DNA from: Sulfurovum sp.
Lineage (GTDB): Bacteria > Campylobacterota > Campylobacteria > Campylobacterales > Sulfurovaceae
Assembly: GCA_024762315.1 (NCBI GenBank)
Contig: JANTHR010000001.1
Location: 1-64,000 of the forward strand
DNA length: 64,000 nt
Reading direction: 5' to 3'
Made by a program: the position numbers and the translations under genes. Of the stretch, positions 7,888 through 13,400 are shown one piece after another (the stretch's first letter is position 1; every line of letters begins with the position of its first letter). Under the pieces are notes generated by a model. That model searched no databases, was not told where the DNA came from, and was given only the letters and a program-made list of their open reading frames with translations.

Positions 7888-9147
7888 ATGCATGAACAAA
7901 CACTAGCTATCCATGCGGGATATGACAAAGATGCGATGGGGACCATGGCTGTGCCTATTTATCAGACTACAGCGTATGAGTTTAGGAACACGGAACATGC
8001 GGCGAACTTGTTTGCACTCAAAGAGCTTGGGAACATCTATACGAGACTGATGAACCCAACCACTGATGTCTTTGAAAAACGTTTTGCCGCACTTGAAGGA
8101 GGGGCGGCTGCCATAGGGACTGCTTCGGGGATGGCGGCAATTTTTTATGCTATCGCCAATGTGGCCGAGGCTGGAGATAATATTATCGTGGCAAAGCAAG
8201 TCTATGGCGGAACTACGACATTGACTGGGCATACCATTAAGCGTTTTGGTATTGAGACACGCTACTTTGATGTACGTAACCCTTCTGAAATAGAAGCGCT
8301 TGTAGATGGCAAAACAAAGATCATCCTTTTTGAAAGTATTACAAACCCGAGCATAGATGTGGCAGATTTTGATACGATTGTAGCTATTGCCGATAAATAT
8401 GGTATTTTAACTTGTGTAGACAATACGGTAGCCACACCTATTTTATGTAAACCGTTGGAGTATGGGTGTGATCTGACTGTACACTCTGCAAGTAAATATA
8501 CCACAGGACAAGGACTTGCAATTGGAGGTGTGATCGTTGAACGTGAAAATCTGGTGGAGAAGATCAAGGGGAATGCGCGTTATGCACACTTTAATGAACC
8601 TGATGAGAGTTACCATGGGCTGGTCTACACTGATGTACCGCTTCCACTCTTTACATTAAGAACGCGTCTGGCTCTTTTACGTGACTTGGGTGCAGCACCA
8701 AGTCCGTTTAACTCCTGGTTATACATTCAAGGACTTGAAACATTACCGCTTCGTATGAGACAGCACTCTGCTTCAGCACTTGCTATAGCAGAATTTTTGG
8801 AGGCGCATCCAAAGGTAGGGAAGGTGAATTATCCGGGGTTAAAGTCTGATGCGAACTACACATTGGGACAAAAATATTTCAAAGGCGGGCACTCAGGGCT
8901 TCTCTCTTTTGAAGTAGCGGACAAAGAGACCGCACAAAAGATAGCTGACAGTACGGAGATTTTTTCATTGGTGGTAAACATAGGTGACTCTAAGTCCATC
9001 ATCACCCATCCTGCAAGCACTACGCATCAACAACTCTCAGCACAGGAGCTTGAAGATGCAGGAGTTCCGGGTGGGCTTGTCAGGCTAAGTGTGGGACTTG
9101 AAGATACACAGGATCTGATTGATGATCTGAAGAAGGCTTTGGGGTAA
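7888..9147 (+). CDS. metY: O-acetylhomoserine sulfhydrylase
   Basis: A 419-residue Cys/Met-metabolism PLP enzyme that makes homocysteine directly from O-acetylhomoserine and sulfide. The PLP lysine is K203 in SASKYTTGQG. The length of about 420 residues, and residues such as NPTTDVFEKR and the C-terminal HPASTTHQQL followed by VRLSVGLED, favour the MetY subfamily over the shorter cystathionine gamma-synthase. The next plus-strand gene is metX, which supplies its substrate, so the direct sulfhydrylation route is encoded here. The two genes are separated by a REP-like pair and have separate -10 boxes. Confidence 0.95.
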   Translation: MHEQTLAIHAGYDKDAMGTMAVPIYQTTAYEFRNTEHAANLFALKELGNIYTRLMNPTTDVFEKRFAALEGGAAAIGTASGMAAIFYAIANVAEAGDNIIVAKQVYGGTTTLTGHTIKRFGIETRYFDVRNPSEIEALVDGKTKIILFESITNPSIDVADFDTIVAIADKYGILTCVDNTVATPILCKPLEYGCDLTVHSASKYTTGQGLAIGGVIVERENLVEKIKGNARYAHFNEPDESYHGLVYTDVPLPLFTLRTRLALLRDLGAAPSPFNSWLYIQGLETLPLRMRQHSASALAIAEFLEAHPKVGKVNYPGLKSDANYTLGQKYFKGGHSGLLSFEVADKETAQKIADSTEIFSLVVNIGDSKSIITHPASTTHQQLSAQELEDAGVPGGLVRLSVGLEDTQDLIDDLKKALG

Positions 9148-9151
9148 AGGT

Positions 9152-9248
9152 AGGGTGCTGTTGCCACAGCACCACATAATAAAATTTGTATAAAATAAAA
9201 CTTTCGCCGCAAGGGCTGCTAAAAGGTGCAGTGGCAACCGCACCCTAC
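9152..9248. repeat. Inverted pair of REP-like elements (family A, copies 2 and 3)
   Basis: Copy 2: GGTGCTGT (9154-9161) pairs perfectly with ACAGCACC (9166-9173) around TGCC. Copy 3: GGTGCAGT (9225-9232) pairs with ACCGCACC (9237-9244). Copy 2 starts with TAGGG and copy 3 ends with CCCTA, so the two are inverted around a 50-base AT-rich core, like a BIME or a tiny MITE. No frame is coded. The pair fills the metY-metX gap and may terminate metY. Confidence 0.65.
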
Positions 9249-9300
9249 AAGTTTAAATATGATAAAATATTGCAATTAAATTTAAGCATAAAAGTTCCTA

Positions 9301-10395
9301 ATGAAAATCAAAACCAAAACAGCACATTTCAGTTCCCCCCTTTATCTTGAAAGTGGGCGTATCCTGGAGCCGTATGAAATAGCGTATGAGACCTATGGTG
9401 AACTCAATGAGGATAAAAGCAACGCTGTCTTGATCTGTCACGCATTGAGTGGCTCTCATCATGCTGCAGGTGTGTATGAAGGTGAGCAAAAAGCCGGTTG
9501 GTGGGATGGACTTATCGGTGAGGGCAAGGCCATAGATACAAGTAAGTATTTTGTCATCTGTACAAACGTGGTGGGTTCATGCTTTGGCAGCACCGGACCC
9601 ATGAGTGAGAATTATCCCAGTGAAGAGCTTTACAGACTTAGATTTCCTGTTATAACCGTTAAAGATATGATCAGGGCACAAATGCAGTTGCTTTCCTCTT
9701 TGGGTATTTATCACCTTCGAGCGATCGTCGGTGGTTCAATGGGTGGAATGCAGGCACTTCAGTTTGCCGTGGATTATCCGAATCTTGCAGATGACATTAT
9801 CTCTCTTGCAGCAACCTATGCTACAAGGCCATGGACAATAGCTTTCAATAAAGTAGCAGTAGAAGCTATACGGCGAGACCCTCGTTTTGAACATGGTAAC
9901 TATGCAAAAGATGCCTTTAAAGAAGAGGGCCTGGATGGTTTGGCTGTTGGACGCATTGCGGGGCATATCTCCTATTTGGCCCCCGGGTCCATGGATGATA
10001 AATTTGGACGAAACTATGTAAGTAATGATGGGCTTTTTGAACTCTTTGGACGCTACGAGGTTGAGCGTTATATGGAGTACAATACCAATAATTTTTCACG
10101 TATTTTTGATCCACTCTCATACCTCTATATCGTAAAAGCGATCAATACATTTAATCTAAGCAGAGGATATGACTCCCTGCATGATGCCATTTCACGTATA
10201 AAAGCAAATGTCCATTTGATAAGTTTTTCTTCGGATTATCTGTTCTTTCCTTCAGAAATGGAACATATTGCCAAAATGATGAATCGTAACGGGCAACCCT
10301 ATACCTATTTGGAAGTGCAGAGTGATTATGGGCATGATGCCTTTTTGGTTGAGTTGCATAAGTTTGAAGAGAATATAAAAGAGGTACTGCAATGA
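9301..10395 (+). CDS. metX: Homoserine O-acetyltransferase
   Basis: A 364-residue alpha/beta hydrolase that transfers acetyl from acetyl-CoA to homoserine. The nucleophile S146 lies in the elbow GGSMGGMQ. An aspartate near SSDYLFFP and histidine in YGHDAF complete the triad. Early motifs NAVLICHALSGSHH and NVVGSCFGSTGP are characteristic of the MetX family. It feeds MetY upstream. A TAAAAT -10 lies at 9263-9268, behind the REP-like pair. The stop overlaps a short ATG frame leading to xseB. Confidence 0.97.
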   Translation: MKIKTKTAHFSSPLYLESGRILEPYEIAYETYGELNEDKSNAVLICHALSGSHHAAGVYEGEQKAGWWDGLIGEGKAIDTSKYFVICTNVVGSCFGSTGPMSENYPSEELYRLRFPVITVKDMIRAQMQLLSSLGIYHLRAIVGGSMGGMQALQFAVDYPNLADDIISLAATYATRPWTIAFNKVAVEAIRRDPRFEHGNYAKDAFKEEGLDGLAVGRIAGHISYLAPGSMDDKFGRNYVSNDGLFELFGRYEVERYMEYNTNNFSRIFDPLSYLYIVKAINTFNLSRGYDSLHDAISRIKANVHLISFSSDYLFFPSEMEHIAKMMNRNGQPYTYLEVQSDYGHDAFLVELHKFEENIKEVLQ

Positions 10396-10476
10396 AATTG
10401 CCTGAGCTGTTAGGTGAAACTTTGGTAAGAGAAATTAAAGGCAGACTTTGCTCAGCTTTAAAAAAGAGGTATCACA

Positions 10477-10683
10477 ATGAAAAATGAGACATTTGAACAA
10501 AAGTTAGCATATTCAAAAGAATTGCTTGAAAAACTGATGAATCCGGAGATCACGCTTGAAGAGTCTGTGAAACTTTATGAAGAGGGACTTAAAAATATCA
10601 AAGAGGCCCAAAAGCTTATAGAAGAAGCGAAAACGAAGATCACAGTAATAGAACAGGCAAATCAGGTTAGAGAAGAAGAATAA
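10477..10683 (+). CDS. xseB: Exodeoxyribonuclease VII small subunit
   Basis: A 68-residue helical protein with the XseB pattern: FEQKLAYSKELLEKL, then LEESVKLYEEGLKNIKEAQKLIEEA (read in parts). Several XseB subunits bind XseA to form the single-strand-specific exonuclease VII. XseA is not in the window. Length is typical. It sits between metX and the nitrilase-like gene; AAAGAGG at about 10463-10469 serves as ribosome site. A 31-codon frame (10392-10487) overlaps its start. Confidence 0.93.
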   Translation: MKNETFEQKLAYSKELLEKLMNPEITLEESVKLYEEGLKNIKEAQKLIEEAKTKITVIEQANQVREEE

Positions 10684-10734
10684 TGAAATTATCTGGGGCG
10701 ATTCGAAGCTTTAGTGAGAAGAAAGGATGAAGAG

Positions 10735-11556
10735 ATGTCTAAAAAACTGGTCGTAGCCGCACTGCAACTTCCAACACTGGGTATGAATGCAACACGACTG
10801 GAATTCTACCTTAAAAAAGCACATGAGAGAGGGGCAGATGTCATGCTGCTCGGTGAATATGTATTGAACCACTTTTTTAAAGAGTTTGCTACCATGGCAC
10901 CAAGTATGGTCAAGGGCCAAACCAAAAAACATCTTGAGCTTCTTAAAACACTTTCCGTTAAATACAATATTGTGTTTGTTTCCCCTATCATCATTACCAA
11001 AAAAGACGGTTATCATAAAACGATAGTAAAGATCAGCCCTAAAAATACACGATATTATGAGCAGCAGATACTTTTGCCCTATGCGCACTGGGATGAGAAG
11101 AAGTTTTTTGCCAATGAGGTCAAGCCGCTTAAGGATCCTATGACCTTTAATCTTAAAGGATTCAAGATCATAGTCATGGCAGGGTTTGAATTGCATTTTG
11201 ATCCTTTTTGGCAGCGTGTTACCAAGAAGAAGATAGACCTGGTACTGCTTCCAACAGCATCGACATTCGGTTCACACAACAGGTGGCGTGAGATAGTGAA
11301 AACAAAAGCCTTTTTGCATGGCTGCTTCATTTTACGTGCAAACCGCTTGGGTGAGTATAGTGATGATGACGTAAAATGGAAATTTTATGGTGATACGATG
11401 CTGGTCTCTCCCGAAGGTGAAGTGGAAATGATGCTCGAAGATAAGGAGTCCATGCTCGTAGAGGTCATAGACAAAAAAGAAGTGATTGAGCATCGTAAGG
11501 CTTGGGGCTTTGAAAAAGAATTAAAGATACGGGAGGAGTTGAATCATGACGCCTGA
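10735..11556 (+). CDS. Nitrilase-superfamily protein, catalytic residues apparently degenerate
   Basis: A 273-residue carbon-nitrogen hydrolase fold protein. The N-terminal strand VVAALQLPTLG and E41 in LLGEY fit the family glutamate. Where the lysine is expected (YxK-HL region, about 108-112) the sequence reads YYEQQIL. Where the nucleophile cysteine is expected (about 149-150) it reads VMAGFELHF. The only cysteine is far downstream in FLHGCFILRANR. So two of three catalytic residues look lost by eye. GTG at 10714 is in frame, but ATG at 10735 has GAAAGGA at good spacing. It overlaps the following ThiF-like gene by 11 bases. I recall a similar pair in Helicobacter pylori. Enzymatic function is doubtful. 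Confidence 0.85.
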   Translation: MSKKLVVAALQLPTLGMNATRLEFYLKKAHERGADVMLLGEYVLNHFFKEFATMAPSMVKGQTKKHLELLKTLSVKYNIVFVSPIIITKKDGYHKTIVKISPKNTRYYEQQILLPYAHWDEKKFFANEVKPLKDPMTFNLKGFKIIVMAGFELHFDPFWQRVTKKKIDLVLLPTASTFGSHNRWREIVKTKAFLHGCFILRANRLGEYSDDDVKWKFYGDTMLVSPEGEVEMMLEDKESMLVEVIDKKEVIEHRKAWGFEKELKIREELNHDA

Positions 11557-12220
11557 AGCATACTTTAACAGACAGGTTCAACTTTGGGGATCGAAGGTAC
11601 AGCAGAGTCTGCAAGGTAAAAAAATAGCCATTATAGGTGCAGGTGGATTAGGCTGTACATTGGCAATGGCATTGGGTACTTCAGGTATAGGTGAGATCCA
11701 CATGGTGGATTTTGATACCGTTTCCAACCATAATATCCATCGGCAGATCGCGTTTACTTTGGAAGATGAGGGAAAGAATAAAGCCAAGGCCGTGGTTTCT
11801 CTTATGAAAAGTAAAAATCCTTTTCTCAAGGCGATCGCTTTTGATATGAGTTTTGAAGATTTTAAAGAAATGGGAAATGATTATGATCTTATTTTGGATG
11901 CAACAGATAATTTGCCGGTAAGAGAAGAGATAGACAAACATGCAAAAGAGATGAATGCTCCCTGGATATATGCAAGTGTGGAGGAGTTCAACGGACAGGT
12001 CTGTTTTTTTGAGAAGGCGAATTTCCAGGTCTTTAATATCTCCGATCATAAACCCGGAGGTATCGCCGCGCCGATCGTGATGCATATAGGTTCACTGCAG
12101 GCAAATTTGGCACTACGTTATCTTGCAGGACTTTCAGTGCGTAAAGATAAGCTTTATTATCTTTATTTTAATGATAATGGTGAACTGATCACCCAAAAAT
12201 TTGGTATGCCAAAAGCCTAA
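11546..12220 (+). CDS. ThiF/MoeB/HesA-family (E1-like) adenylyltransferase-fold protein
   Basis: A 224-residue E1-like protein. The nucleotide loop GAGGLG is at residues 31-36, preceded by R9 in FNRQVQLWG, the conserved ring-contact arginine segment. Downstream are VDFDTVSNHNIHRQ and LILDATDN, the usual ATP/Mg residues. The paired CxxC zinc motifs of MoeB and ThiF are absent and the C-terminus ends early, making it a compact member. Family members adenylate ubiquitin-like carriers such as MoaD or ThiS; no such carrier gene is adjacent. It overlaps the nitrilase-like gene, so the two are translationally coupled and probably act together. Specific function unknown. Confidence 0.85.
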   Translation: MTPEAYFNRQVQLWGSKVQQSLQGKKIAIIGAGGLGCTLAMALGTSGIGEIHMVDFDTVSNHNIHRQIAFTLEDEGKNKAKAVVSLMKSKNPFLKAIAFDMSFEDFKEMGNDYDLILDATDNLPVREEIDKHAKEMNAPWIYASVEEFNGQVCFFEKANFQVFNISDHKPGGIAAPIVMHIGSLQANLALRYLAGLSVRKDKLYYLYFNDNGELITQKFGMPKA

Positions 12221-12255
12221 TATGATACAATTACAAAATAGAGGAAGGATATAAC

Positions 12256-12591
12256 ATGAAATTAAACCTATTACTTTTTTCAACGTTTGTTTTGCTATTT
12301 ACAGGATGTACACAGGAAACGCAGAACTCTCTTAGTCGTTCACTACAGAACTGGACAGGGACCAATGGTGTGCTTGATGTCTATGCAGGAGATAAACTGA
12401 TCCATAAATTTATCAAGATAGACAAGATCTCTACGGCATATGGTACGAATGATTCTAAGCTAAGGCCTTACCGTTATGGGTATGGGATCGATGATGTTAA
12501 CTTTAACGGTAAAAAAGACCCAGGAGAAAAGAAAGTCTATTTTGAATTCTCTGACTACTCAACATCCTATATATTTTATGAAAGAAACTAA
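12256..12591 (+). CDS. Small putative lipoprotein
   Basis: A 111-residue protein with an N-terminal signal and lipobox FTGC at about residues 17-20. The mature part has a WTGTNGVLDVYAGDKLIHKF segment and a Gly/Tyr/Asp-rich stretch ending in a predicted beta-rich tail. I do not recognise the family. It lies between the ThiF-like gene (35 bases upstream) and ridA (15 bases downstream), with AGGAAGGA before its ATG, so it belongs to the same operon. Confidence 0.75.
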   Translation: MKLNLLLFSTFVLLFTGCTQETQNSLSRSLQNWTGTNGVLDVYAGDKLIHKFIKIDKISTAYGTNDSKLRPYRYGYGIDDVNFNGKKDPGEKKVYFEFSDYSTSYIFYERN

Positions 12592-12606
12592 AGGAGAAAG
12601 TGTTAT

Positions 12607-12996
12607 ATGAAATTTATCGAAACAAAAGATGCGCCCAAAGCTATAGGACCATATTCGCAAGCCATAGAGGCAAATGGACTTGTATATACTTCAGGACAGA
12701 TTGCTTTGATGCCGGACGGTTCTATGGAGACCAGAAGTGTAGAACATCAGACACACCAGGTCATGAAAAATCTTTTTTATGTGCTTGAAGCAGCGGGAGC
12801 ACACTTTAATGATGTGATCAAAACAACTATTTATTTGGCAGATATGAATGATTTTGAAACGGTTAACCATGTGTACTCACATTATTTTGGTACGCATAAA
12901 CCGGCACGTAGTACGGTTGCTGTGAGAACATTGCCTAAAAATGCATTGGTAGAGATAGATTGTATTGCGCTTGCCGGGGCTGATTATAATTTTTAG
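12607..12996 (+). CDS. ridA: RidA-family enamine/imine deaminase
   Basis: A 129-residue YjgF/YER057c/UK114 protein. Hallmarks are IGPYSQAIEANG near the start, the TSGQIALMPDG strand, and the arginine in ARSTVAVRTLPKNALVEID that binds the substrate carboxylate. RidA trimers hydrolyse 2-aminoacrylate and related imines released by PLP enzymes. This is consistent with the nearby PLP enzyme MetY. A strong AAAGGAG ribosome site precedes the ATG. It ends the metX operon. Confidence 0.95.
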   Translation: MKFIETKDAPKAIGPYSQAIEANGLVYTSGQIALMPDGSMETRSVEHQTHQVMKNLFYVLEAAGAHFNDVIKTTIYLADMNDFETVNHVYSHYFGTHKPARSTVAVRTLPKNALVEIDCIALAGADYNF

Positions 12997-13049
12997 AGTA
13001 AATCTTTCAATAGTTTTAGAGTTTAAAAATAAATTAAAATAGTTTTGGG

Positions 13050-13055
13050 TATAAT
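13050..13055 (+). promoter_or_regulatory. -10 box upstream of rplU
   Basis: TATAAT at 13050-13055, followed by CACGAAC, 40 nt before the rplU ATG. Its downstream CACGAAC resembles the CGCGAAAAT seen behind the pyrH and leuD boxes. Confidence 0.6.
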
Positions 13056-13094
13056 CACGAACTTTTTAAAAAACATAGATATAAAGGGTTTGCA

Positions 13095-13400
13095 ATGTAC
13101 GCAATCATTAAAGCAAGTGGGCAACAATTCAAAGTTCAAGAGGGTGATATCATCTGTTTTGACAATATGAATCTCGAGCCTAAAAGTGCAGTAGAATTCA
13201 AAGAAGTTCTTGCATTGGATAACGGTGAATTAACAGTAGGTACTCCTTTCGTAGAGGGTGCAGTTGTTAAAGGTGAAGTGATCAATGAAGGTAGAGATAA
13301 AAAAGTGATCATCTACAAGAAAAGAAGAAGAAAAGATTCAAAACTTAAAAGAGGTTTCAGAAGAGACTTCACAAGAGTTAGAATTACAAAAGTCGCATAA
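13095..13400 (+). CDS. rplU: 50S ribosomal protein L21
   Basis: A 101-residue protein that starts [18 protein letters not shown], the canonical L21 beginning, and ends with the basic [15 protein letters not shown] region that contacts 23S rRNA. Length is typical. It is co-transcribed with rpmA 23 bases downstream, the near-universal L21-L27 pair, and shares the promoter at 13050. Confidence 0.98.

What the first reader, a model, noticed from the sequence alone, without database searches (positions are those of the whole stretch)
10735..12220. Nitrilase-fold protein lacking two catalytic residues, translationally coupled to a compact E1-like protein
Seen: by eye the family glutamate is kept (E41), but the expected lysine position reads Q in YYEQQIL and the nucleophile cysteine position reads A/G in VMAGFEL; the only cysteine is elsewhere. 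The gene overlaps a ThiF/MoeB-like gene lacking CxxC zinc motifs by 11 bases, with no ubiquitin-like carrier beside it. Established: nitrilases need Glu-Lys-Cys; E1-like proteins adenylate carrier C-termini. Inference: the pair may be a two-part system in which the pseudo-nitrilase binds a ligand or protein instead of cutting an amide. I recall a similar pair in Helicobacter pylori (HP0755/HP0757), so it would be ancient in the phylum, and its function is not described to my knowledge. Of everything in the window this is the best candidate for an undescribed system.
Basis: partly seen in the sequence, partly recalled or inferred. Interest (0 to 1): 0.72.

Follow-up and report, generated by a model that had tools for sequence, protein, structure and literature searches.

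The report
Dead nitrilase beside cofactor-pathway E1 enzyme
A protein shaped like an amide-cutting enzyme but missing its cutting residues really is encoded next to a small ubiquitin-activating-type enzyme, but the neighbour looks like the cell's ordinary activator for making molybdenum cofactor and vitamin B1, and the dead enzyme is a separate, phylum-wide family whose job is unknown.

Summary
The nitrilase-fold protein (10735-11556) keeps Glu41 but has Gln at the lysine site and Gly at the cysteine site. In 47 aligned family members Lys and Cys are never seen there. Its C. jejuni orthologue, CJ1056C, has a solved structure (PDB 9wpn/9wpo).

The 'two-part system' reading does not hold. In 200 sampled Campylobacterota genomes the two genes occur independently (57 with both, 56.1 expected; Fisher p = 0.78): 127 have the nitrilase without this E1, 4 the reverse. 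They are adjacent in 44 of the 57. The steadier neighbour of the nitrilase is xseB, directly upstream in 55 of 58 genomes.

The E1 folds like E. coli ThiF and MoeB and keeps the adenylation residues. In this genome it is the only E1 besides a TcdA-like one, while MoaD and ThiS are encoded elsewhere. It is most likely the MoeB/ThiF activity. The recalled HP0755/HP0757 pair matches, in a Helicobacter-like genome, a TcdA-like E1 and an intact nitrilase.

What remains open is the function of the dead nitrilase and why it stays with xseB.

The parts
10477..10683 (+). xseB, exonuclease VII small subunit; the steadiest upstream neighbour of the pseudo-nitrilase in the loci examined
   Evidence: PF02609 1.9e-12, TIGR01280 above its cut-off; directly upstream of the nitrilase in 55 of 58 genomes. 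In the window itself 51 bases separate it from the ATG of the nitrilase gene (30 from the GTG).
10735..11556 (+). nitrilase-fold protein without catalytic Lys and Cys; orthologue of C. jejuni CJ1056C
   Evidence: PF00795; 9wpn 242.8 bits; model pLDDT 93.6, Z 39.4 to 9wpo
10855..10857 (+). codon of Glu41, the kept family glutamate
   Evidence: 47 of 47 family members
11017..11019 (+). codon of Lys95, invariant in this family, where AguB has Asn of the NS motif
   Evidence: 47 of 47; alignment with 5h8i
11062..11064 (+). codon of Gln110 at the catalytic lysine position
   Evidence: never Lys in 47
11182..11184 (+). codon of Gly150 at the nucleophile cysteine position
   Evidence: never Cys in 47
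11546..12220 (+). compact ThiF/MoeB-type E1 (adenylyltransferase) without CxxC zinc motifs
   Evidence: PF00899 6.4e-44; model pLDDT 94.4; Z 31.1 to E. coli ThiF and 30.2 to MoeB; adenylation residues invariant in 30 of 30

Best explanation
Two separate proteins share one operon-like run of genes. The E1-like protein is the cell's MoeB/ThiF-type adenylyltransferase: it binds ATP and adenylates the C-terminal Gly-Gly of MoaD (Mo cofactor) and of ThiS (thiamin), both encoded elsewhere in the genome. The nitrilase-like protein is the Campylobacterota CJ1056C family: a nitrilase fold that lost the lysine and the nucleophilic cysteine, so it cannot cut amides by the family mechanism. It keeps both active-site glutamates and has invariant Lys95, Arg183 and Arg201, so I infer that it binds a small, probably anionic ligand as a sensor or scaffold, and that it is made from the same message as xseB. 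Shown: residues, folds, distribution, gene order. Inferred: MoaD and ThiS as substrates, ligand binding, the shared message, and that the E1 adjacency is operon inheritance.
For: E1: the closest folds are ThiF, ThiS-ThiF and MoeB-MoaD. In 19 of 42 genomes that I chose to examine, single-contig ones included (G058, G163, G036, G074, G191, G122, G134, G004), compact-clade E1s are the only E1s over the Pfam cut-off besides TcdA-like ones, and all 19 have at least two ThiS/MoaD-family carriers over the cut-off. The 13 of 42 without the compact E1 have a CxxC MoeB-type E1 (8) or another type (5, in 4 of them near ThiS), so all 42 keep some non-TcdA E1. One MoaD ending PPVCGG and one ThiS ending FVGGG, FVAGG or FTGGG were read in 16 of those 19; the own genome has both carriers too, its ThiS ending APVCGG. 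Nitrilase: Lys and Cys absent in 47 of 47, Glu41 and Glu121 present in 47 of 47. No association with the E1: 57 both, 4 E1 only, 127 nitrilase only, 12 neither, Fisher p = 0.78. xseB upstream in 55 of 58 genomes, also in changed surroundings (L285, L140).
Against: No reaction was tested. Adjacency of the two genes in 44 of the 57 genomes that have both, often with overlapping frames, is compatible with a functional link. The E1 misses the curated ThiF and MoeB cut-offs. G019 has a canonical E1 but no carrier was found there by PF02597, so E1 and carrier presence do not match in every genome. Ligand binding rests on conserved charges alone; I could not inspect side-chain geometry. xseB survives in 14 of 16 genomes that lack the nitrilase, and in the window xseB and the nitrilase gene do not overlap.
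Confidence: 0.68

Rival explanations
1. One reading: the pseudo-nitrilase and the E1 form a dedicated two-part system in which the nitrilase presents a ligand or protein to the E1.
For: Adjacent, same strand, in 44 of 57 genomes that have both and in 54 of the 72 closest named loci with room downstream (52 in the script's 0-200 base bin plus two that overlap by 7 bases).
Against: Presence is not associated (Fisher p = 0.78). 127 of 200 genomes have the nitrilase without this E1, 4 the E1 without the nitrilase. In G044 the E1 directly follows xseB with the nitrilase gone. In 16 of the 72 loci no E1 was found in the flank held, in 2 it lies 1.0 and 2.3 kb away. The E1 has carriers elsewhere in the genome.
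Confidence: 0.1
2. The nitrilase-like protein is still an enzyme with changed chemistry, for example with Lys95 taking over from the lost lysine.
For: Lys95, Glu41, Glu121, Arg183, Arg201, Trp119 and Trp184 are invariant in 47 of 47, which is more than a pure scaffold would seem to need.
Against: No conserved cysteine in any column (the best column has Cys in 18 of 47) and no other obvious nucleophile; Gly at the nucleophile site in 46 of 47.
Confidence: 0.15
3. The pseudo-nitrilase works with XseB, as an accessory or regulator of exonuclease VII.
For: xseB directly upstream in 55 of 58 genomes, mostly overlapping or abutting frames (37 of 42 measured gaps), and in changed surroundings such as ubiE-like, xseB, nitrilase, serS-like and xseB, nitrilase, murA-like. 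An XseA-family match in 42 of 42 genomes.
Against: xseB persists in 14 of 16 genomes without the nitrilase; no fusion protein found in the loci searched; in the window the two genes are 30-51 bases apart.
Confidence: 0.12
4. The compact E1 activates an unknown peptide or protein rather than MoaD or ThiS.
For: At least three genomes keep both a ThiS-adjacent E1 and the compact E1 (G194, G020, G152), so at least one of the two has a separate job.
Against: In those genomes MoaD still needs an activator, and in 19 of 42 genomes there is no other non-TcdA E1 although two carriers exist.
Confidence: 0.1

Closest known systems
CJ1056C of Campylobacter jejuni (PDB 9wpn, 9wpo)
   Same: Orthologue: 43% identity over 259 residues, Z 39.4, rmsd 1.2; same Gln and Gly replacements visible in its sequence
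   Different: In the Campylobacter-type loci seen (L098, L103) the gene is followed by a murC-like gene, with no compact E1
N-carbamoylputrescine amidase AguB (Medicago 5h8i) and the H. pylori G27 carbon-nitrogen hydrolase 6mg6
   Same: Fold, Z about 29-30; family glutamate and the NRxG / FYG motifs
   Different: Lys and Cys replaced; extra invariant Lys95 and Arg201
E. coli ThiF and MoeB
   Same: Fold (Z 31.1 and 30.2); GxGGxG and the Asp, Asn, Arg, Gln, Lys residues of the adenylation site are invariant (their roles are recalled)
   Different: No CxxC zinc motifs, shorter crossover region, and one E1 for what looks like two carriers
TcdA-like E1 (own genome C13)
   Same: ThiF fold
   Different: Separate clade, support 100/99; much lower score to the compact profile (60 against 371 bits)

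Membership tests
Nitrilase superfamily, as fold | Nitrilase fold over the full length | tested here: met
   Z 28-39 to many nitrilases
Nitrilase superfamily, as active amidase | Catalytic Glu-Lys-Cys | tested here: not met
   Lys to Gln110, Cys to Gly150; 0 of 47 family members keep either
CJ1056C family of Campylobacterota | Full-length orthology with the Gln/Gly replacements | tested here: met
ThiF/MoeB adenylyltransferases | ThiF fold with complete ATP and adenylation residues | tested here: met
ThiF/MoeB adenylyltransferases | Curated equivalog score of ThiF or MoeB | tested here: not met
   TIGR02356 127.3 against cut-off 275.25, TIGR02355 99.4 against 376.55
ThiF/MoeB adenylyltransferases | Two CxxC zinc motifs of canonical members | tested here: not met
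   0 of 21 compact rows
ThiF/MoeB adenylyltransferases | Carriers ending in Gly-Gly in the same genome | tested here: met
   MoaD beside MoaE- and MoeA-like genes, ThiS beside ThiG- and ThiC-like genes (PF02597; ORFs, neighbours named by my reading)
ThiF/MoeB adenylyltransferases | Adenylates MoaD or ThiS | not testable with these tools
   needs an assay
TcdA (tRNA ct6A) E1 | Groups with the TcdA clade | tested here: not met
   compact clade separate, 100/98; the tree warns that long branches between groups meet
Wolinella HcyS/HcyF/HcyD homocysteine pathway (recalled) | A third, dedicated carrier (HcyS) | tested here: not met
   own genome has two PF02597 hits only, one beside MoaE, one beside ThiG

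The most novel reading that the evidence does not exclude
xseB and the dead nitrilase are a phylum-wide two-gene unit: the pseudo-nitrilase, with a rebuilt charged pocket, binds an anionic metabolite or nucleotide and tunes exonuclease VII assembly or activity in Campylobacterota.
Probability: 0.12. Interest if true: 0.6.

Novelty: new member of a known kind. Interest (0 to 1): 0.34.

Why it matters
It corrects a likely mis-annotation in two directions: the nitrilase-like gene should not be called an amidase, and the small E1 should be considered the MoeB/ThiF of these genomes although it fails the curated ThiF and MoeB cut-offs. It also points to an unexplained, conserved neighbourhood of a dead nitrilase with xseB across a phylum that (as I recall) includes human pathogens and deep-sea sulfur oxidisers.

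Tried and rejected
Carrier tails co-adapted to the E1 type: rejected. MoaD ends PVCGG and ThiS usually FVGGG whether the genome has the compact, canonical or Campylobacter-type E1. In one search, 60 carrier loci were read; 58 gave a tail ending in GG, L177 and L185 gave none and were dropped.

Wolinella Hcy methionine pathway: suggested by metY and metX upstream (7888-9147, 9301-10395). Rejected for this genome for lack of a third carrier. One search found no paper on it in the held library.

Fusion proteins of XseB, nitrilase and E1: none in the frames of the loci held.

Promoter and terminator scan of 9000-13200: counts at or below the shuffled mean (7 against 10.3, 2 against 2.7), so no help on transcript borders.

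Literature: HP0757 (two papers, passages in gene lists seen); Cj1056c (one paper, passage seen, which lists it as a putative carbon-nitrogen hydrolase with expression modulated at low pH); 9WPN/9WPO (one unrelated paper, listing only); pseudoenzyme or nitrilase terms with Campylobacter (one paper on pseudo-receivers, listing only; none); HP1481 (none); xseB with carbon-nitrogen hydrolase (none); Cj1057c, HP1482, Cj1056 (two papers; passage seen, where Cj1057c is a 'putative coiled-coil protein'). No bioRxiv or most subscription papers are in that library, so a paper on the CJ1056C structure may exist. HP1481, HP1482 and Cj1057c as locus tags of the orthologue and xseB are recalled.

Samples and rows left out: the neighbourhoods and the 42 genomes were chosen by me, not at random. 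One search used 47 of 49 nitrilases of the cluster (L075, L100 left out), one search used 30 of 31 E1s (L075 left out), one search used 21 of those 31. Orthologue sets use E of about 1e-39 (E1) and 1e-40 (nitrilase), read by eye; six of the 61 E1 genomes are a divergent family (f4, 38-44% identity), none with the E1 beside the nitrilase. Adjacency 44 of 57 was counted by eye from coordinates (same strand, within 250 bases). The first-start rule for ORFs can lengthen genes, so some overlaps are upper estimates. TcdA-like E1s were assigned by score band and length; four were checked in the tree. A complex prediction was not possible, as a joined sequence is not a window protein.

Full report
Observation. 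The window encodes, on the plus strand, xseB (10477-10683), a nitrilase-fold protein (10735-11556) and a small ThiF-fold protein (11546-12220); the last two overlap by 11 bases. Pfam assigns Exonuc_VII_S, CN_hydrolase and ThiF. Against AguB of Medicago, Gln110 sits on the catalytic lysine and Gly150 on the nucleophile cysteine. A profile alignment to Lys- and Cys-bearing nitrilases of the phylum gives the same columns (7 rows, one a 32-aa fragment), and the own genome's other nitrilase reads ICFELRF where this protein reads AGFELHF. Among 47 family members Glu41 is invariant, the lysine site is Gln 42, Ala 4, Ser 1, and the cysteine site is Gly 46, Ala 1. A second glutamate (Glu121), Lys95, Arg183, Trp184, Arg201 and Trp119 are invariant too. 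The protein has one cysteine, Cys197, whose column holds Cys in 18 of 47.

Identity of the nitrilase. The nearest solved structure is CJ1056C of Campylobacter jejuni (9wpn, 9wpo, released 2025-10-08), 242.8 bits. My AlphaFold2 model (mean pLDDT 93.6) matches it at Z 39.4, rmsd 1.2 over 259 residues, well above the next nitrilases at Z about 30. A match at E of 1e-40 or better was counted in 184 of 200 sampled Campylobacterota genomes. In Helicobacter-like G019 the orthologue lies in the order ubiE-like, xseB, nitrilase, serS-like; these gene names are my reading of the sequences.

The recalled pair HP0755/HP0757. In G019 a stretch with the order fliD-like, fliS-like, 79-aa ORF, 219-aa E1, 67-aa acidic ORF, 292-aa nitrilase fits the H. 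pylori order as I recall it. That E1 falls in the TcdA clade and that nitrilase has Glu, Lys (YRKMHIP) and Cys (MVCWDQW). Two papers that list HP0757 call it a beta-alanine synthetase homolog and an N-carbamoylputrescine amidase (passages). So it is not the window pair.

Identity of the E1. By sequence it is nearest to MoeB (4e-21) and ThiF (7.6e-21) of E. coli, the best TcdA structure scoring 4.5e-10. Its model (pLDDT 94.4) matches E. coli ThiF at Z 31.1, ThiS-ThiF at 30.8 and MoeB-MoaD at 30.2. Arg9, Gln10, the GxGGxG loop, Asp55, Asp57, Asn63, Arg66, Gln67, Lys79, Asp118, Asp121 and Asn122 are invariant in 30 of 30. No compact row has a CxxC (0 of 21) while canonical MoeB-type rows have two (11 of 11), and the compact E1s form one group, support 100/98 (the tree warns that long branches between groups meet). 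It misses the curated ThiF and MoeB cut-offs.

Role of the E1. The own genome (99.71% complete, 132 contigs) has only two E1s over the Pfam cut-off: this one and a TcdA-like one on C13. It encodes MoaD beside MoaE- and MoeA-like genes (C3) and ThiS beside ThiG-, ThiO- and ThiC-like genes (C72), with no ThiF or MoeB there. Among 42 chosen genomes, 19 have compact-clade E1s as their only E1s besides TcdA-like ones, and all 19 have at least two carriers over the cut-off; eight of them are single-contig genomes, so an assembly gap is not the reason. TcdA-like was assigned by score band and length; four were checked in the tree. Of the 13 genomes without the compact E1, 8 have a canonical CxxC E1 and 5 another type, near ThiS in 4 of the 5 (not in G012). 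In G194, G020 and G152 a separate E1 lies beside ThiS and the compact E1 is kept, which fits a MoaD role. One genome, G019, has a canonical E1 but no carrier found by PF02597.

Are the two genes a system? In the 200 genomes: both 57, E1 only 4, nitrilase only 127, neither 12; expected both 56.1; Fisher p = 0.78. Where both occur they are adjacent in 44 of 57; the 13 others include two of the window's own family (G177, G196). In the 80 closest named loci (mostly labelled Sulfurovum), 72 have room downstream; 52 have the E1 within 200 bases, two more (L203, L277) overlap by 7 bases, two have it 1.0 and 2.3 kb away and 16 show none in the flank held. In G044 the E1 follows xseB after 10 bases and the nitrilase is gone. 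So the adjacency is real and often tight, but neither gene needs the other.

The steadier neighbour. xseB lies directly upstream of the nitrilase in 55 of 58 genomes of my neighbourhood set and in 76 of 78 named loci with room (the exceptions are L111, L115, L284 and L260, L264). Of 42 xseB-nitrilase gaps measured, 37 are zero or negative; the window's is not (30 bases from the GTG, 51 from the ATG). Upstream of the pair lie metX, guaB, ubiE-like or other genes, and downstream E1, murC-, aminotransferase-, murA- or serS-like genes (names mostly my reading), so the pair has kept together in changed surroundings. Against a functional need: xseB is present in 14 of 16 genomes that lack the nitrilase; in two (G062, G082) neither was found. 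An XseA-family match is present in 42 of 42.

Verdict. The dead-nitrilase observation is correct, the family has a solved structure but no function that I could find in the held library, and the E1 is best explained as an ordinary cofactor-pathway adenylyltransferase in compact form. On this evidence the pair is not an undescribed two-part system.

Noticed in passing
window 10477-10683 with 10735-11556: xseB is the most constant neighbour of the dead nitrilase in the loci examined, also where the surroundings differ.
   Followed up: partly
L296:6070-7786: In a Helicobacter-like genome a TcdA-like E1 and an intact AguB-like nitrilase lie together around a 67-aa very acidic ORF: a second, unrelated E1-nitrilase neighbourhood.
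   Followed up: partly
L130:5178-5378: The own genome's ThiS ends APVCGG, like MoaD, whereas ThiS of most relatives read ends FVGGG.
   Followed up: partly
L135:3265-5893: In G167 a ThiS-like carrier (76 aa) and an E1 (223 aa) overlap by 4 bases, behind a 575-aa protein that looks like an aldehyde ferredoxin oxidoreductase (my reading of the sequence).
   Followed up: no
L089, L090, L091: Family f6 genomes G044, G122 and G134 keep the compact E1 but show no orthologue of the dead nitrilase; in G044 the E1 closes up to xseB.
   Followed up: yes
window 12256-12591: A 111-aa lipoprotein-like ORF without Pfam match at E 0.1 follows the E1; relatives in three other fetched loci, of the same family (cluster 18).
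   Followed up: no
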